Source: DASVDK01 sp036381125 [NCBI: Thermodesulfobacteriota bacterium]
GTDB taxonomy: Bacteria; DASVDK01
Length of the DNA stretch: 13,227 bases
Direction: 5' to 3'
NCBI GenBank assembly: GCA_036381125.1
Contig: DASVDK010000115.1
Location: 1 to 13,227, forward strand
In this document: positions 3,334 to 13,227 of the stretch, piece after piece
Layout of the letters: every line of letters begins with the position of its first letter
Numbering within the stretch: position 1 is the first letter of the stretch
Notes under the pieces: generated by a model
Told to the model about the DNA's origin: nothing
Databases searched by the model: none
Seen by the model: only the letters and a program-made list of their open reading frames with translations
Position numbers and translations under genes: made by a program

Positions 3334-5637
3334 CTAGAGGAGCGAGAGCTGCTTGGGCCGCGTCGCGTCGCCGCCGCCGAAGAGGCGGCCCCACTCGGCA
3401 TCGGAGAGGAACGGCCGGATCCGCTTGAGCACCTCGTCGAGCTTGCGGAGGTAGTAGTCGACGTTCTCGTCGCGCGCCGCCGGGTCGAACTCGGAGGCGA
3501 GCTTCGCGTGCGAGAAGCCGGTGACCCGCGCGCCCCGCCCGGTGATGTAGTAGGTCACCGCCTCGCCCCGCCTGAAGTCGCCCCGGGACCGCTTGGCCAG
3601 CTCGTAGACGGCGGCGCGGTTGCGCCCGCTGCGGGCGACCTTCCGGTCGTACTCGCTCCGCGACTCGCGCAGGTACTCGGTCCGCGCGAACTCCCGCACG
3701 TCGAGCTCGCGCGCGAGGATGCGGCGCCTGAGGTCGTGGTAGGCGTCGGCGAGCCGCTCGTGCTCGCCCGTGAGGAGACATCGGATGGCGGTCTCGAGGA
3801 ACGTGCGGGCGAAGGGCTCGACGTCGCGGGCGCGGAAGGCGCTGCCGGCGAGCTTGACGTGGCCGTCGTAGTCGAGCAGGGCGTAGTTCTTGACCTTGTA
3901 GCTCAGCATGGCGGCGTACCGGCCGTCGAACGCGATGCGGATGCCGCCGGGCGCCGCCGCCGCCATCTGCTCGACGAACGCCCGCTCGGCGGCCTCCCCC
4001 TCCGGCAGGTCGGGCGGGGGCACGAAGTAGAGCCCGTCGGTGTCGATCTCGATGACGCGTCCGCCGGCCGCGCGGACGAAGTCGATCATGCGGCCGAGGA
4101 TCTGCTGGCCGGTCGTCGTGACCCGCTCGGCCTCGTCGAAGTCGTTGAAGAGCCCGAAGGACCAGCCGAGGTAGCCGAAGAACGAGTTCACGAGGATCTT
4201 GAAGGCGCCCTGAAGGGCGTCCAGCCGCGCGCGCTCGACCGGGTCGGTGGCGGCCGCCGCGGCCCGCTTGGCGGCAAGCCGGCGCGCGGTGAGCGCCTCG
4301 AGGAGCCTCGGGAAGACGCCGAGGGTGTCGCGGCGCGGCCTGATGCCGTAGGCGAGCATGACCGACGGATAGAGCGACTCGACGTCGGCCTTCACCACGC
4401 GCCTGACCACGCCGGTCTCGTACACGGCGGTGAGCCCGCCCGGGAAGGCGCGCGCCGGCGACGGTCTCGGCAGGCTCGCGCCGGCCTGGACGTAGGCGCG
4501 AACGAGCAGCATCTCGATGCGCGACGCCATGCCGGTCGACACGACGCTCTGCAGCCCCATCGGCAGGATCTGCGTCTGGTAGAAGAGCGGCCCGACGAGG
4601 GTCGTCGCGAGCGCGGCGGTCTCCCGGACGTCGTCCATCGCGTAGCGGGCCAGCGTGTCGGGGTCGCGCGTCCAGAGTTCGCTGATCTCGCGCCCCTCGA
4701 CGTACGTGCGGCCGGGCGGCACGAGGCCGAACCACCGCGCGGCCTGCTTGAGGCCGTAGGACGGCATCTCCCGCTTCACCATGTCGTACTGCTGGACCAG
4801 GAACCAGGTGTCGACGACGTGCCGCCCCGGCACGTCGTAGCGGGTGTAGTCCACCGTGCGGTCGGCGAAGCGCACCCGCGCGGGGACGGCGGTCGGCTCG
4901 CCGCCGTCGCGGCCGATGGCGAACGGCACGCCGTGACGACGGCATCGGGCCGCGAGGTAGGCGAGGTCGAAGTTGAAGACGTTGTGCCCCTCGATCACGT
5001 CGGGGTCCCGCTCGCGGATCAGCGCCACCAGCGCCTCGAGCATCGCGCGCTCGTCGAGCACCCGGCCGTCGAGGAGGCGCTCGAAGCCGCGGCCGTCGGA
5101 GAGGGAGACCAGGATGATCCGGTCGCCCTCGCGCCCGGGGTCGCTGAACTCGCCCGGGACGCTCGAGTAGGTCTCCAGGTCGATCTGCAGGCGGGCGAGG
5201 TGCTCGAAGGCGAGCCCCTTGAAGAGGGTCCGTCCCGAGGCGACGAGGTACTGCTCGCGCGGGTCGCGCAGGAGGAGCAGGTCGGGCACCGACGCCGGGC
5301 TGTCGATGGCGGTGCCGTGCCGGCGGTTGTAGCGCTCGAGCGCCTCCCGCGCCGCCTGGCGGTAGGCGCGCAGGCCGGGGAACACCGCCAGCCAGCCGAA
5401 CGGGCCGTCGCCCGAGAGCCGCTCGAGGCGCGCCCCGCTCTTCGCCGGCCCGAGGAGGTCGGGGTCGGCCAGGTGGAAGAAGGGCTCGAACGGGACCTCC
5501 GTGCGGACGAGCCGGCCGGGGCCGCCGTCGGCCGGCGGCCGCTGGTAGCACGCCATGCGGTCGTCGCCGACCGGTTCGACGGCGACGAGCCACGGCGTGG
5601 GGTCGCGTCCCTCGAGGAGATGGTCCGCTCCGGTCAC
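3334..5637 (-). CDS. polB: Family B DNA polymerase (Pol II / archaeal-like)
   Basis: This is a 767-residue DNA-dependent DNA polymerase with a 3'-5' proofreading exonuclease. Exo I is DLET (D153, E155), Exo II is GHNVFNFD (N219, D224) and Exo III is YAMDD (Y332, D336). Polymerase motif A is DVESLYPS (D418), motif B is KILVNSFFG (K480, N484, G488) and motif C is IDTDG (D532, D534), so both activities look intact. The N-terminus (HLLEGRDPTPWLVAVEP) fits the usual start of bacterial members of this archaeal-like group. The protein ends in KQLSLL, resembling the QL(S/D)LF peptide by which bacterial polymerases bind the beta sliding clamp. I chose the GTG at 5637 because it overlaps the TGA of the upstream lipoprotein gene (GTGA), a standard coupling arrangement; the frame stays open further upstream but has no better-placed start. 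By analogy with E. coli Pol II, a role in repair or replication restart is likely. Confidence 0.94.
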   Translation of the reverse strand: MTGADHLLEGRDPTPWLVAVEPVGDDRMACYQRPPADGGPGRLVRTEVPFEPFFHLADPDLLGPAKSGARLERLSGDGPFGWLAVFPGLRAYRQAAREALERYNRRHGTAIDSPASVPDLLLLRDPREQYLVASGRTLFKGLAFEHLARLQIDLETYSSVPGEFSDPGREGDRIILVSLSDGRGFERLLDGRVLDERAMLEALVALIRERDPDVIEGHNVFNFDLAYLAARCRRHGVPFAIGRDGGEPTAVPARVRFADRTVDYTRYDVPGRHVVDTWFLVQQYDMVKREMPSYGLKQAARWFGLVPPGRTYVEGREISELWTRDPDTLARYAMDDVRETAALATTLVGPLFYQTQILPMGLQSVVSTGMASRIEMLLVRAYVQAGASLPRPSPARAFPGGLTAVYETGVVRRVVKADVESLYPSVMLAYGIRPRRDTLGVFPRLLEALTARRLAAKRAAAAATDPVERARLDALQGAFKILVNSFFGYLGWSFGLFNDFDEAERVTTTGQQILGRMIDFVRAAGGRVIEIDTDGLYFVPPPDLPEGEAAERAFVEQMAAAAPGGIRIAFDGRYAAMLSYKVKNYALLDYDGHVKLAGSAFRARDVEPFARTFLETAIRCLLTGEHERLADAYHDLRRRILARELDVREFARTEYLRESRSEYDRKVARSGRNRAAVYELAKRSRGDFRRGEAVTYYITGRGARVTGFSHAKLASEFDPAARDENVDYYLRKLDEVLKRIRPFLSDAEWGRLFGGGDATRPKQLSLL

Positions 5638-6110
5638 CCCGTTATGATGATCACTCCGGGCGAGAAGAAAAAGAACAGAAACCCTCGCGCCGGGAAGCGT
5701 GCCCCGATGTCCACGTCGACCTCCCGGATGCGAGGCCGGGGGGCCGGCAGGAGGACCGCGAACGTGCCCCGCTCGCCGGGGAAGAGCGTCCGCGTCCCCT
5801 GGACGACGTCGAACACCGGCACATCGGGAACCGTCTCGAAGGGGACGAGCCGGCCGAACGCGTCGACGACGAAGGTCGTGAGCGTGACCTCGACGTCGAA
5901 GGCCTCGACGTCGCCCACGTTGACGACGGTGCCCGACACCTCCTGGTCGCCGTTGCCGAACCGGGTGACGACGACCGACCCCTCGAGCCGCAGGTCGGCG
6001 CGAGGGGCCGAGTGGAAGCCGACGGCGACATCCCCGCACCCGGCGGCCTGCACCCCGAGCAGCAGCAGGAGCGCGAGGGCGTGCGGCCCGACGTGCCGCC
6101 GGCTAGTCAT
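5634..6110 (-). CDS. Small predicted lipoprotein with CARDB/FxLYD-like fold
   Basis: This 158-residue protein starts MTSRRHVGPHALALLLLLGV and reaches Cys25 in QAAGC, a plausible lipoprotein signal with a weak -3 residue (Ala). Residues about 40-135 look like one secreted beta-sandwich. The pattern GTVVNVGDVEAFDVEVTLTT followed by a PGERGTF turn resembles CARDB or FxLYD extracellular domains. The C-terminus is odd: GFLFFFFSPGVIIITG is strongly hydrophobic and comes from a local AT-rich tract (5641-5690). The ATG has a GGGGAACGG-type ribosome site about 6-10 bases upstream. The TGA stop overlaps the GTG of the polymerase gene by the GTGA motif, so the two are probably co-translated. A functional link to the polymerase is not evident. 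The function is not known. Confidence 0.78.
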   Translation of the reverse strand: MTSRRHVGPHALALLLLLGVQAAGCGDVAVGFHSAPRADLRLEGSVVVTRFGNGDQEVSGTVVNVGDVEAFDVEVTLTTFVVDAFGRLVPFETVPDVPVFDVVQGTRTLFPGERGTFAVLLPAPRPRIREVDVDIGARFPARGFLFFFFSPGVIIITG

Positions 6111-6850: not shown

Positions 6851-7213
6851 CTAGTTCAGCCGCTTCTTGACGAGGCTGTCGATGCGCTTCGCCGTCTCGG
6901 GATCCACGTCCTGGAACTCGATCCCCATGCCGGGCTCCGTGCGGCCCCCGACCCGGTCCTCGAACTCCTTCGTGATCCAGACAACCCGCCCGGCGACCTT
7001 GATGACGCGCGAGTCCTCGGGGAGGGAGAACTGCAGGTTCACGAGCGTGCCCGGCGTGAGGGGGGACCGGGACTTGAGGAAGAGGCCGTCGCGGTTGATG
7101 TTCGCGGAGTAGTCGGAGTACGGCGCGTCGTCCCGCGTCATGTCGACCTTGTAGTCGACCTTCACGTAGATCGGTACGCGCGGCTGGCGGCGCTTGTCCC
7201 CCTTACCCGACAT
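6851..7213 (-). CDS. Single-domain PilZ protein (TIGR02266-like)
   Basis: This is a 120-residue cytoplasmic PilZ domain protein. The N-terminal RRQPR gives the RxxxR switch (R8, R12), and NINRDGLFL (38-46) stands where the (D/N)xSxxG motif belongs, with Asn40 in place of the Ser. The rest follows the family: SPLTPGTLVNLQFSLPEDS, then VAGRVVWI and GMGIEF, ending in a helix. The spacing and wording resemble the TIGR02266 PilZ subfamily found in myxobacterial proteins. PilZ domains usually bind cyclic di-GMP, but the Ser-to-Asn change may weaken or alter binding. The ATG has a strong ribosome site (GGAGG about 8 bases upstream), and the gene starts 11 bases inside the end of the reductase gene, so the two are probably one transcript. 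A second PilZ-containing gene lies beyond the reductase. Confidence 0.9.
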   Translation of the reverse strand: MSGKGDKRRQPRVPIYVKVDYKVDMTRDDAPYSDYSANINRDGLFLKSRSPLTPGTLVNLQFSLPEDSRVIKVAGRVVWITKEFEDRVGGRTEPGMGIEFQDVDPETAKRIDSLVKKRLN

Positions 7214-8384: not shown

Positions 8385-8427
8385 CGAGCGCTCGCCCGGA
8401 AGGCGGCGTCACCACACGCTATCTGTG

Positions 8428-8457
8428 TTGATCCGGGCTTTCTCGCCGTGCTATAAG
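8428..8457 (+). promoter_or_regulatory. Predicted sigma70-type promoter of the PilZ-fusion/kinase operon
   Basis: TTGATC (8428-8433) and TATAAG (8452-8457) are separated by 18 bases. Transcription would start near 8464, leaving a leader of about 38 bases with AGGAG five bases before the GTG start. It lies back to back with the reductase promoter in a 156-base divergent region. The surrounding sequence is otherwise very GC-rich, so the AT-rich -10 stands out. Confidence 0.6.
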
Positions 8458-8501
8458 AGCCCCCGGTTGGCTTGCGGCCCCCCCTCGCGACAGGAGCCTC
8501 C

Positions 8502-11500
8502 GTGGACGCAGTTCGGGTCCCGCGGGCGCGAGCCCTTCCCTGGGTCGCCTGCGACCTCCCCCTCGAACCTGGTGTCGGCGGCACGGTCGGTGAGGGCCGG
8601 GTGACCGGTCTGTCGATGGACGCGGTCCGCCTGGCCGGCGCCGAGGGGCTTGCCGAGGGAGCCGAGGTCAGGATCGGGTTCAGGCTGCCGGGTCAGCGGG
8701 CGGCCACCGTCCTCTCCGGCCGGGTCGAGCCGGACGAGGCGGGCGCCGCGGCGGTCCGCATCGCCATCCTCGGCTTCGAGAAGGGCGCCGAGCGGGCCTA
8801 TCGTCAGTTCGTCCTCGCCCGGGTCGGGGCCGACACCCTCGCGCGCCAGGCCGAGGCGCTCACCACGCCGTCGGGCCGGCTGGTGCCGCTGACCGATCCT
8901 GCCCGCATCCGGGAACTCCTCGCCGACTCCCTCGCCTACCGGGCCGACGCCCTCGTGCAGGGGGCCGACCTGCCCCAGCCGGTGCGGGCGCTCCTCACGG
9001 ACGTGACGGCGACGGAGCTGCTCCTCACGGCCGAAGGCGGCAGCAGGGGCGGCCCGCTCGCCGGCACGCGCGTCCGCTGCTCGCTCCTGTCGCGACACGG
9101 GCCCTATCTGTTCGAGGCCGACGTGCGCGGCTGCACCGACGGCCAGTTTCGCCTCGCCTTCCCCACCCGGCTCCACCAGTACGAGAAGCGCGGCGCGCCC
9201 CGCCTCGTGGTCGGCGCCGGTCGCGCCGGCGGCGCTCGACGCGAGCCGGCCGAGCCGCTGCCGCCCGACCGCATCGTGCTCACGCTGCCGCCCGTCTACG
9301 GCGGCACCATCGAGCGGCCGCTCATCGACGTGAGCGAGACGGGGGCGGCCTTCCGCAGCCGCCCGGGCGATCCGCTCTTCCTGCCCGGCACGCCGCTTGC
9401 CGGCGTCGTGCTCGTGCTCAACGGCGCGCCCGGCTCGCCCCGGCCGGCCGAGGTCCGGCAGGTCGCGCTGGAGACGGCGGGCGACGGCGCCGGGGGGCCG
9501 ACCTACCGCGTCGGCCTCGCCCTCGACGTCGAGCGTGCAAGGCCGGTGCGCGGCTCGCAGGGGCCGGAGGCGCCGGCAGTGCGGCGACCCGGCCTCTTCG
9601 CCCGCGCGGCGGAGGGCGACGGCCTCGCCGGCCGACTGGTCCGCCGCCTCCGGGCTCCCCTCGAGGCGCTGCGCGCGACCCGGGTTCGGTCTCGCGCCCG
9701 GGCCGGCGGGCCGCTCGTCAACGTGGTCCGCTACCGCCGGCGCGACGGCGAGCCGATCGTCGGCCTCGTCAACAGCACGCAGCCGATCGGCCGCGCGGGC
9801 GCGCGGCTGCGCGGGCCGCTCGTCGTCATCCCGCCCGCCTACGGGAAGACCAAGGAGACCTACTCCGCGCTCGCGCTGATGATCACCGAGACCTTCCGGC
9901 GACACGGCCGCGACGTCGTCGTGGTCCGCTACGACGGCACGTACGCCGTGGGGGAGAGCCACAAGGCGCCGGAGGACTGGCCGGACGAGCGGCAGATGAT
10001 GCGCTTCACGCTGTCGGCCGGCGCGGGAGACCTGCTGGCGACGCTGGACTACTTCCACGGCCGCCCCTGGTTCCGTCCGACGCACACCGTGGTCATCAGC
10101 TTCAGCCTCGCCGCGCTCTCCACCCGGCGGGCGATCCTCTCCGACCCGTCGGGGCGGACGACGCACTGGCTGAGCGTCGTCGGCGCGCCCGACGCCCAGG
10201 AGGTGATCTTCAACGCGACCGGCGGCTTCGACGCCATCGGCGGCCACCAGCTCGGCATCCGCTACGGCACCGTGCAGGTCCTCAACCACCTGATCGACGC
10301 CGACCACTTCTCGCAGGACGCCGTCGCCTCGGGACTGGCGACGCTCCAGGACGCGCGGCGGGACCTCGGCCGGATCGCGATCCCGGTCACCTGGTTCGTC
10401 GGACGCGACGACCGGTGGGTGCGCGCCGAGCGGGTCTACGACGTCATGAGCGTGGCCGCGCCGGCGCCGCGGGAGGTGGTCGAGCTGCCGGTCGGCCACA
10501 CCATGCGCTCGTCGGCCGAGGCGCTCGCGTCGTTCGACACGATCATCCGCCACCTCTGGCGGCAGCTCCACGGCGAGACGCCGGTCGAGGTCCGGGCCGA
10601 CGAGGCGGCGATCAAGCGCGTCGCCGCGCTCGAGCGGGGCCGACTGCCGCGCCGCCGGATCGGCGACGCGCGGGAGTACTGGTCCCGCTACCTCGTCGGC
10701 GACGACGGGCGCGGGATCGGCTTCGACCTCTGGGCCACGACGCCGGCCTACACGGACCTCATGGACCTGCAGCGGCAGCTCCTCGACGTGTGCGAGGGGG
10801 ACGTCGTGGCCGACCTCGGGGCCGGGACCGGGAACTTCACGGCGCACCTGCTCGACCGGCTCGTGCGCGACGGCTTCCGGGCGAGCCCGAGGCGGCTCGT
10901 CGTCGCCGACCTGGTGCCCGCGGCGCTCGAGCTGGCGCGCGCGAAGGCCGGGCGGATCCTCGAGGGGGTGCTCGCGCCGAGCGACTTCCTGGAGTTCCGC
11001 GAGCTGAACCTCGAGACGAGCCGCCTGCGCCCGATCCGGCGCTTCCTCGCGGGGGAGTTCCCGAGCGTCGAGGGGCTGCGAGGCCTCGTCGACGGCCTGC
11101 CCGACGCCACGCTCGACGCGTGGCTCGCGGTGTACGACGAGCGGCTGCACGCCTGGCTCAGGGGCGCCGCCCCCGACGGCCCGCTGCGCTCGCACGTCGG
11201 CCGGCTCCTCAAGGGCGTCGACCTCGAGGTGGCGGTCGAGTTCAACCGCGCCGCGCGCTGGACGCTCGGCCGGCTCGCGCCCGAGGACCTCTCCGCGGAC
11301 CTCGGGATGGCCGAGGCGCGGGCCGTCCTCGCGGACGCCCGCTCGGCGACGGTCGCGCACCTTCGCTTCGATCGGCTGCGCTTCGACGGCCCGGGCCTCG
11401 ACGACGCCCTCCCCTTCCCCGACGCGAGCCTCGACAAGGCGGTCATGAGCCTCGTCCTCTCGTACCTCTTCGACCCGGTCGAGACCCTTCGCGAGGTGCA

Positions 11501-11837
11501 CCGCATCCTGCGTCCCGGCGGTCGGCTCGTCGCCTCCACGATGCGGCCCGACGCCGACCTCTCGCGCACCGCGGAGGAGCTGGTCGATCGCATCAGGACC
11601 GATCCGGCGGTCCACCAGCGCTTCGGCGTCTCGGTCGAGGAGCTGTCCGCCGCCGTCCAGCGCTACATCAACTCGGCCGCGAGCCTCCTCGACCTCGAGG
11701 AGGGGGGCGTCTTCCGCTTCTTCTCGAAAGAGGAGATGCGGGCGCTCCTCGAGCAGGCCGGCTTCGACCGGGTGAAGGTCTACGAGTCCTTCGGCCGCCC
11801 CCCACAGGCCTTCGTGGCGGTGGGCGTGAAGCGGTGA
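8502..11837 (+). CDS. PilZ-PilZ-LuxD-like hydrolase-methyltransferase fusion protein
   Basis: This is an 1111-residue cytoplasmic multidomain protein without signal peptide or membrane helices. Residues 1-115 look like a degenerate PilZ module (VTGLSMDAVRL, SGRV). Residues 125-225 resemble the YcgR-type N-terminal barrel. Residues 226-345 are a PilZ domain with RGAPR (R230, R234) and DVSETG (276-281), as expected for c-di-GMP binding. Residues 437-690 are an alpha/beta hydrolase most like LuxD acyl transferases: VVVVRYDGTYAVGES, VVISFSLAAL (probable nucleophile Ser533), FVGRDDRWV (acid Asp636 or Asp637) and PVGHTM (His666). Residues 725-1111 are a class I SAM methyltransferase with VVADLGAGTGNF (768-779), a helical insertion at about 840-950, ASLDKAVMSLVLSYL and RILRPGGRLV. 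The GTG at 8502 has AGGAG upstream; an in-frame TTG at 8472 lacks a ribosome site. The substrate is unknown; acylation or methylation of a surface lipid or polyketide is inference. The kinase gene follows after 12 bases. Confidence 0.9.
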   Translation: MDAVRVPRARALPWVACDLPLEPGVGGTVGEGRVTGLSMDAVRLAGAEGLAEGAEVRIGFRLPGQRAATVLSGRVEPDEAGAAAVRIAILGFEKGAERAYRQFVLARVGADTLARQAEALTTPSGRLVPLTDPARIRELLADSLAYRADALVQGADLPQPVRALLTDVTATELLLTAEGGSRGGPLAGTRVRCSLLSRHGPYLFEADVRGCTDGQFRLAFPTRLHQYEKRGAPRLVVGAGRAGGARREPAEPLPPDRIVLTLPPVYGGTIERPLIDVSETGAAFRSRPGDPLFLPGTPLAGVVLVLNGAPGSPRPAEVRQVALETAGDGAGGPTYRVGLALDVERARPVRGSQGPEAPAVRRPGLFARAAEGDGLAGRLVRRLRAPLEALRATRVRSRARAGGPLVNVVRYRRRDGEPIVGLVNSTQPIGRAGARLRGPLVVIPPAYGKTKETYSALALMITETFRRHGRDVVVVRYDGTYAVGESHKAPEDWPDERQMMRFTLSAGAGDLLATLDYFHGRPWFRPTHTVVISFSLAALSTRRAILSDPSGRTTHWLSVVGAPDAQEVIFNATGGFDAIGGHQLGIRYGTVQVLNHLIDADHFSQDAVASGLATLQDARRDLGRIAIPVTWFVGRDDRWVRAERVYDVMSVAAPAPREVVELPVGHTMRSSAEALASFDTIIRHLWRQLHGETPVEVRADEAAIKRVAALERGRLPRRRIGDAREYWSRYLVGDDGRGIGFDLWATTPAYTDLMDLQRQLLDVCEGDVVADLGAGTGNFTAHLLDRLVRDGFRASPRRLVVADLVPAALELARAKAGRILEGVLAPSDFLEFRELNLETSRLRPIRRFLAGEFPSVEGLRGLVDGLPDATLDAWLAVYDERLHAWLRGAAPDGPLRSHVGRLLKGVDLEVAVEFNRAARWTLGRLAPEDLSADLGMAEARAVLADARSATVAHLRFDRLRFDGPGLDDALPFPDASLDKAVMSLVLSYLFDPVETLREVHRILRPGGRLVASTMRPDADLSRTAEELVDRIRTDPAVHQRFGVSVEELSAAVQRYINSAASLLDLEEGGVFRFFSKEEMRALLEQAGFDRVKVYESFGRPPQAFVAVGVKR

Positions 11838-11849
11838 CGAGGCGCGCCG

Positions 11850-13227
<1,378 letters not shown>

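What the first reader, a model, noticed from the sequence alone, without database searches (positions are those of the whole stretch)
8502..11837. PilZ x2 + LuxD-like acyl hydrolase + methyltransferase in one polypeptide
Seen directly: a PilZ domain with both RxxxR and DxSxxG motifs, a serine-hydrolase region with LuxD-like signatures (SFS, GRDD, GHTM) and a complete SAM-binding methyltransferase share one reading frame. LuxD enzymes normally supply fatty acid to bacterial luciferase, yet no lux genes are visible here. A c-di-GMP receptor joined to an acyl-handling enzyme and a methyltransferase suggests second-messenger-gated lipid or polyketide modification. I do not recognise a described system with this layout.
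Basis: partly seen in the sequence, partly recalled or inferred. Interest (0 to 1): 0.78.

Follow-up and report, generated by a model that had tools for sequence, protein, structure and literature searches.

The report
Likely c-di-GMP-gated fatty-acyl signal synthase
One bacterial protein joins a likely sensor for the internal messenger c-di-GMP to an enzyme domain of a kind that releases fatty acids and one that adds methyl groups, and in the four genomes where I found it the next gene is the same type of membrane receptor, which suggests a new way of making and sensing a fatty chemical signal.

Summary
Window 8502-11837 encodes one 1111-aa protein: a decayed N-terminal PilZ domain, a full PilZ domain (R230xxxR234, D276xS278xxG281), a LuxD-like acyl hydrolase and a SAM methyltransferase. 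It is not a chance fusion. I found three more members, in Planctomycetota genomes (one is Candidatus Anammoxibacter), 24-31% identical to the window. The PilZ motif residues, the Ser-Asp-His candidates and the SAM motif are invariant in the four.

The finding stopped one gene short. In 4 of 4 loci the next gene is a histidine kinase with a homologous membrane sensor. That sensor is also homologous to the kinase of a phcBSRQ-like (fatty-acid methyl ester quorum sensing) operon of Paraburkholderia graminis. In another planctomycete the sensor follows a PhcB-like methyltransferase. FadL-type genes lie near two of the fusion loci and near that cluster.

My reading: a c-di-GMP-gated synthase that frees an acyl chain and methylates it, with a receptor kinase beside it. 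It would work like PhcB/PhcS, but it is not a PhcB homologue. Confidence about 0.45; the chief rival is c-di-GMP-gated lipid modification without signalling. Structure prediction failed. c-di-GMP binding, substrate and product are untested.

The parts
8492..8496 (+). ribosome-binding site AGGAG, 5 nt before the GTG start
   Evidence: read directly
8502..11837 (+). fusion gene: PilZ(decayed)-PilZ-LuxD-like hydrolase-methyltransferase, 1111 aa
   Evidence: relatives
8523..8831 (+). N-terminal PilZ remnant, residues about 8-110; motifs lost here
   Evidence: aligned with a Pfam-scoring PilZ in P0002/P0003; window itself only TIGR02266 E 0.038
9186..9551 (+). second PilZ domain, residues about 229-350 (borders approximate; Pfam stretch 267-336)
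   Evidence: PF07238
9189..9203 (+). RxxxR motif, R230-R234
   Evidence: invariant columns in 4 of 4 members
9327..9344 (+). DxSxxG motif, D276 S278 G281
   Evidence: invariant columns in 4 of 4 members
9708..10586 (+). LuxD-like alpha/beta hydrolase domain, residues about 403-695
10104..10106 (+). candidate nucleophile S535
   Evidence: invariant in 4 of 4; register against LuxD Ser114 (residue number recalled) uncertain
10410..10412 (+). candidate acid D637
   Evidence: invariant in 4 of 4
10497..10499 (+). candidate base H666
   Evidence: invariant in 4 of 4
10659..11834 (+). SAM-dependent methyltransferase domain, residues about 720-1111; motif I VADLGAGTGNF at 769-779
11007..11360 (+). 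insertion of about 120 residues in the methyltransferase between motif I and the LPFPDASLD stretch; shared by relatives, fold unknown (possible lid)
11850..13226 (+). histidine kinase, runs off the window; the paired gene
   Evidence: HisKA and HATPase_c; 12 nt after the fusion's stop
11850..12450 (+). membrane sensor of the kinase, six hydrophobic segments; just under the MASE8 cut-off

Best explanation
The fusion and the kinase behind it form a fatty-acyl signalling pair. The LuxD-like domain cleaves (or transfers) the acyl group of acyl-ACP or another acyl thioester. The methyltransferase methylates the product, most simply the freed carboxyl, giving a fatty-acid methyl ester or similar methylated lipid. 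The PilZ module binds c-di-GMP through R230/R234 and D276/S278/G281 and turns this activity up or down. The downstream kinase detects the product with its membrane sensor. In one relative that kinase also carries GGDEF and EAL domains, so the output could feed back on the c-di-GMP that gates synthesis. Shown: domains, invariant motifs, conserved gene pair, sensor homology. Inferred: c-di-GMP binding and its sign, the thioesterase substrate, the methyl acceptor, and ligand recognition by the kinase.
For: Same fusion in four genomes, directly upstream of a kinase with the homologous sensor in 4 of 4; stop and start overlap by 4 nt in L001 and L024. Invariant c-di-GMP, triad and SAM residues. LuxD likeness: 1THT is the only PDB match of the profile at E up to 0.1; NCBIfam LuxD 38.2 and 44.0 bits in relatives. 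The sensor is homologous to the kinase of a phcBSRQ-like operon in P. graminis (hhalign E 9.5e-11 over 193 columns; BLASTP E 1e-7; six hydrophobic segments in the window and P. graminis sensors at like spacing), while three unrelated membrane proteins give E 0.22-0.73. In G002 a kinase with this sensor overlaps by 14 nt a methyltransferase 36% identical to the P. graminis PhcB-like one. FadL-type genes near L001, L024 and the G002 cluster, although these genomes hold few: 4 matches in G001, 2 in G040, 7 in G002. Fatty acid desaturase next to the L001 fusion. The L024 kinase is HK-REC-GGDEF-EAL.
Against: The methyltransferase shows no useful similarity to the PhcB-like enzyme (E 0.035 on a generic motif), so methyl ester formation is inferred from context alone. 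The sensor is not confined to such pairs: of 5 hits in 73 genomes, one is on an adenylate cyclase and one on a kinase beside acetoacetate-decarboxylase-like genes. PhcB-like proteins also occur without it: G044 and G028 have a PhcB-like match and no sensor match. The Pfam name MASE8 fits only the window and P. graminis sensors, both below cut-off; the L001, L024, L052 and G002 sensors give no MASE8 hit, and the same hydropathy rule gives L001 five segments, not six. No FadL or desaturase was found in the window; the G002 FadL gene is on the opposite strand and in two frames. That the P. graminis operon is phc is inferred from layout, lengths and R22, not from comparison with Ralstonia PhcB. 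Both structure predictions failed.
Confidence: 0.45

Rival explanations
1. c-di-GMP-gated lipid remodelling without signalling: the protein releases acyl chains and methylates a membrane lipid or fatty acid for membrane adaptation, and the kinase senses the membrane state rather than a secreted product.
For: Desaturase and FadL neighbours fit membrane lipid metabolism as well as a signal; the sensor also occurs on an adenylate cyclase.
Against: The pairing with one sensor kinase in 4 of 4 loci and the parallel PhcB-like/sensor pair in G002 are what a synthase-receptor pair would show.
Confidence: 0.3
2. BioC/BioH-like masking and unmasking: the methyltransferase caps a carboxyl on an acyl-ACP precursor and the hydrolase removes the cap, in synthesis of biotin or another dicarboxylate.
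For: BioC 30.9 bits (window domain), 39.5 and 40.4 (relatives), and BioH 12.7 bits; methyltransferase plus hydrolase in one protein is the right pair of chemistries.
Against: Far below the BioC and BioH cut-offs of 184.95 and 206.95; LuxD scores better than BioH; no bio gene among the neighbouring proteins scanned by Pfam.
Confidence: 0.07
3. Aldehyde or luciferase-like chemistry: the LuxD-like domain supplies fatty acid for reduction, as in light production.
For: LuxD family likeness.
Against: No lux-like partner among the proteins scanned in the window or beside L001 and L024; LuxD equivalog cut-off of 420 bits far from met.
Confidence: 0.03
4. A regulatory protein whose enzyme domains are mainly scaffolds, with PilZ and kinase acting through protein contact.
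For: No activity is known; both structure models failed.
Against: Triad candidates and the SAM motif are invariant among members 24-31% identical to the window, which is unlikely for dead enzymes.
Confidence: 0.08

Closest known systems
Phc quorum sensing (PhcB methyltransferase, PhcS histidine kinase; methyl 3-hydroxy fatty acid signals) of Ralstonia and relatives
   Same: methyltransferase gene directly followed by a histidine kinase; sensor domain homologous to that of a Phc-like kinase
   Different: methyltransferase not detectably related; extra LuxD-like and PilZ domains in the same chain; found here in Planctomycetota and an unplaced high-GC bacterium
LuxD / Acyl_transf_2 (thioesterase 1THT)
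   Same: hydrolase domain sequence; conserved Ser, Asp and His candidates
   Different: no lux genes seen nearby; embedded in a four-part protein; below the LuxD equivalog cut-off
PilZ c-di-GMP receptors such as YcgR and TIGR02266 proteins
   Same: PilZ domain with RxxxR and DxSxxG
   Different: fused to two enzyme domains; hhalign with YcgR gave nothing useful (E 0.079), so no close kinship to YcgR is claimed; that test was weak, since the same alignment also failed against a certain PilZ protein
RpfF/RpfR (DSF-type signal synthase with thioesterase activity held by a c-di-GMP-related partner)
   Same: a fatty-acid signal enzyme tied to a c-di-GMP module (passage in PMC13220807)
   Different: RpfF is a crotonase-fold enzyme (recalled) and RpfR a separate protein; here receptor and enzymes are one chain
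BioC and BioH
   Same: methyltransferase and alpha/beta hydrolase acting on acyl-ACP carboxyls (recalled)
   Different: scores far below family cut-offs

Membership tests
PilZ domain | Pfam PF07238 over its cut-off | tested here: met
   35.5 bits on residues 1-345, 30.0 on the whole protein, cut-off 22.5
PilZ domain | RxxxR and DxSxxG c-di-GMP motifs | tested here: met
   second PilZ only; invariant in 4 of 4; first PilZ of the window has lost them
PilZ domain | binds c-di-GMP | not testable with these tools
   needs protein
LuxD / Acyl_transf_2 | Pfam PF02273 over its cut-off | tested here: inconclusive
   window 18.4 bits against 20.3; L001 35.7 and L024 46.5 bits pass
LuxD / Acyl_transf_2 | NCBIfam LuxD equivalog cut-off (420 bits) | tested here: not met
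   17.6 bits in the window domain, 38.2 and 44.0 in relatives: a distant relative, not LuxD itself
LuxD / Acyl_transf_2 | Ser-Asp-His triad | tested here: inconclusive
   S535, D637, H666 invariant in 4 of 4, but the gapless HMMER register does not pair S535 with LuxD Ser114 (number recalled), and no usable model was obtained
LuxD / Acyl_transf_2 | lux operon context | tested here: not met
   no lux-like hits among the window proteins scanned
class I SAM methyltransferase | motif I and Methyltransf_11 over cut-off | tested here: met
   50.1 bits on the domain, cut-off 21.2; D771, G773, G775, G777 invariant
Phc system | PhcB-type methyltransferase | tested here: not met
   E 0.035 to the P. graminis PhcB-like protein, on a generic motif
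Phc system | PhcS-type sensor kinase directly downstream | tested here: met
   sensor homologous to the kinase of a phc-like operon, with controls; the comparator is phc-like by inference
Phc system | PhcR/PhcQ-type response regulators | not testable with these tools
   window ends inside the kinase
Phc system | makes a methyl ester signal | not testable with these tools
   needs enzyme assay
BioC / BioH | NCBIfam cut-offs | tested here: not met
   BioC 30.9 (window domain), 39.5 and 40.4 (relatives) against 184.95; BioH 12.7 against 206.95

The most novel reading that the evidence does not exclude
A single polypeptide is a c-di-GMP-gated autoinducer synthase: it both frees a fatty acid from its carrier and methylates it, and it is wired to its own membrane receptor kinase, which in one lineage carries GGDEF and EAL domains and so could set the level of the messenger that gates the synthase. 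This would be a closed loop joining quorum sensing and c-di-GMP in two adjacent genes, in anammox-related and other bacteria.
Probability: 0.3. Interest if true: 0.88.

Novelty: new variant of a known kind. Interest (0 to 1): 0.7.

Why it matters
As far as I recall, links between fatty-acid signals and c-di-GMP usually run through separate proteins, as in RpfF/RpfR. A synthase that carries the c-di-GMP receptor in its own chain would make the coupling a single-protein question that can be tested in vitro. It would also give anammox-related planctomycetes a concrete candidate signalling system; one full-text search for anammox with quorum sensing and fatty acid methyl ester listed only three papers, off topic by title.

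Tried and rejected
Structure: full-length model mean pLDDT 30.7 and hydrolase-domain model 40.2, two sequences each; both discarded and no fold search was run. Hydrolase in phages and plasmids: no match; fusion in viral contigs: 84 pattern stretches, no relative; window sensor in plasmids: no match. Plasmid searches with whole fusions gave one record and 27 records of which 20 were listed; the listed hits are in the methyltransferase part only. In one search, 49 of 98 genomes matched P0002, but only G001 and G040 full length; the other matches were short, and all but one lay in the methyltransferase part. The exception, in G072 (E 2.4e-4), fell in an ORF that looks like a secretin by eye and was dropped; the class search with the hydrolase profile gave no match in G072. 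PF02273 missed G157 in the phylum sample, which the three-member profile found, so absences by family model are weak evidence; one search also listed short LuxD-like hits in G185 and elsewhere in G001 that were not studied. YcgR as a PilZ yardstick gave nothing useful, nor did the window's lone PilZ; alignment A7 was poorly aligned at the motif and these tests had little power. A long antisense ORF (8451-13085, minus) is set aside as a high-GC shadow: its GC peaks at first codon positions and the plus-strand proteins are conserved. A terminator-like site at 8405-8420 is noted only.
Full report
The gene. Window 8502-11837 (+) is one open frame of 1111 residues, with AGGAG five bases before its GTG start. 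Codon-position GC (0.78, 0.52, 0.955) is like that of the neighbouring genes. With domains given as sub-sequences, Pfam gives one PilZ domain (35.5 bits), a methyltransferase (Methyltransf_11 50.1 bits) and a hydrolase that misses the Acyl_transf_2 (LuxD) cut-off at 18.4 of 20.3 bits. By sequence the hydrolase finds one PDB entry at E up to 10, the LuxD thioesterase 1THT (E 0.0045).

Relatives. A scan of the 84,980-species collection with six peptide patterns of the single protein, which reaches close relatives only, found one: 1073 aa in a Candidatus Anammoxibacter MAG (Planctomycetota), 30% identical in the pairwise alignment. Whole-genome searches around it found a second, 54% identical to the Anammoxibacter protein (G040), and, with a hydrolase or methyltransferase profile, a third (G157). 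In a sample of 392 genomes of the phylum 3 had the hydrolase profile match, and in the class 2 of 75. The family is sparse there. The window's own genome is not held, and I had no handle in another phylum to search from.

What is conserved. In a four-member alignment (24, 25 and 31% identity to the window) the invariant columns include R230, R234, D276, S278, G281, S535, D637, H666 and the SAM motif residues D771, G773, G775, G777 and D803. The relatives P0002 and P0003 have two PilZ stretches each, the N-terminal region among them, and so has the readable piece of the G157 copy; in the window the first PilZ has lost its motif residues. The hydrolase is clearly LuxD-like in P0002 and P0003: Acyl_transf_2 35.7 and 46.5 bits, NCBIfam LuxD 38.2 and 44.0 bits, and the three-member profile finds only 1THT in the PDB at E up to 0.1 (E 2.8e-7). 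The same family rings in 0 of 14 control genomes. The exact serine register against LuxD is unsettled. The methyltransferase carries an insertion of about 120 residues of unknown fold, shared by the relatives.

The gene next door. In the four loci the next gene is a histidine kinase. In the window it starts 12 nt after the stop; in L001 and L024 stop and start overlap by 4 nt; in L052 it starts about 125 nt on. Its first 200 residues, a membrane domain, are 32-33% identical between the window and L001 or L024 and 32% in L052 (E 2e-15; hhalign E 1.1e-18). A simple hydropathy rule gives six segments in the window and five in L001. The parts behind vary: HK-REC in L001, HK-REC-GGDEF-EAL in L024, HK-REC-HK in the frame-broken L052 copy; the window's kinase is cut by the window end.

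Why a signal. A profile of the sensor hit 5 of 73 genomes of the class: the two fusion loci, G002, G041 and G052. In G002 the kinase overlaps a 483-aa methyltransferase by 14 nt and is followed by a receiver-ATPase protein; a FadL-type gene lies further on, on the opposite strand and split over two frames. That methyltransferase is 36% identical over its length to one on a Paraburkholderia graminis plasmid, where the order is methyltransferase, kinase, response regulator, response regulator; the receiver parts of the G002 and P. graminis regulators are 34% identical. This resembles phcBSRQ. PhcB in Ralstonia makes methyl 3-hydroxy fatty acid signals and PhcS senses them (passages of PMC6989110, PMC10653808 and PMC11960443). 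The P. graminis protein has arginine at position 22, the position of a reported PhcB mutation in a residue conserved in Ralstonia, Cupriavidus and Paraburkholderia (PMC6989110 passage); its kinase has the histidine of HEVNNP at 233, against a phosphorylated histidine at 230 reported for PhcS (PMC11960443 passage). I could not compare with Ralstonia PhcB or PhcS themselves. The P. graminis sensor aligns with the fusion-associated sensor over 193 columns (hhalign E 9.5e-11; BLASTP E 1e-7 with the window), and three unrelated membrane proteins do not (E 0.42, 0.73, 0.22). FadL-type genes lie near L001, L024 and the G002 cluster; those of L001 and G002 are 44% identical, those of L001 and L024 25%. 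FadL matches number 4 in G001, 7 in G002, 2 in G040 and 7 in G157, some of them pieces of one gene, so this is unlikely to be chance in G040 and G001; in G157 the contig ends just past the kinase.

Against. The fusion's methyltransferase is not a PhcB relative at any useful level. Two of the five sensor hits are in other settings: an adenylate cyclase, and a kinase beside acetoacetate-decarboxylase-like genes. PhcB-like matches occur in 4 of 75 genomes of the class; of these G044 and G028 have no sensor match, and the G001 one lies on another contig than the fusion. The Pfam family MASE8 matches the window sensor (24.8 bits) and the P. graminis one (17.6) below its cut-off of 26.2, and not those of L001, L024, L052 or G002. 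No structure could be predicted (mean pLDDT 30.7 and 40.2). c-di-GMP binding, acyl substrate, methyl acceptor and ligand are all inferred.

Literature. Full-text searches of the held open-access library for PilZ with methyltransferase, hydrolase and domain architecture (4 papers), PilZ with fatty acid, thioesterase, methyltransferase and histidine kinase, PilZ fused to enzymatic domains, PilZ with autoinducer synthase or methyl ester, LuxD with thioesterase and LuxD with PilZ (none) listed nothing that by title or start of abstract describes this architecture. Most subscription papers are not held, and domain-architecture databases were not available. I saw passages of PMC6989110, PMC10653808, PMC11960443, PMC9102662 and PMC13220807, and only search listings of the rest.

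Verdict. A real, conserved architecture that my searches did not find described, best read as a c-di-GMP-gated fatty-acyl signal synthase with its receptor next door. It works like Phc signalling but is not a member of the Phc family by its synthase.

Noticed in passing
window 3334-6039 (-): A family B DNA polymerase with exonuclease domain.
   Followed up: no
window 6851-7213 (-): A standalone PilZ protein of the TIGR02266 type lies two genes from the fusion, on the other strand.
   Followed up: partly
L036 841-2148 (same gene as L039 6488-7795): The fusion-associated sensor (profile match E 2.2e-15) heads an adenylate cyclase, so the sensor is shared between kinase and cyclase outputs.
   Followed up: no
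L038 6475-9670: A kinase with the same sensor next to two genes that look alike, one of which scores as an acetoacetate decarboxylase family protein.
   Followed up: no
L052 2936-6952 and 279-2887: In genome G157 both the fusion gene and the kinase gene change reading frame; decay or assembly error cannot be told apart.
   Followed up: partly
NZ_CP134637.1 46755-47450: A type I polyketide synthase on an Enterobacter ludwigii plasmid contains a stretch 30% identical to the G002 PhcB-like methyltransferase.
   Followed up: no
L043 1501-2280: Genome G001, which has the fusion, also has a separate PhcB-like match, 31% identical over part of the query.
   Followed up: no
L040 5929-7332, residues 15-90: The N-terminal region of the PhcB-like protein looks beta-rich and may be a distant PilZ-like barrel; no family hit there, impression only.
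   Followed up: no
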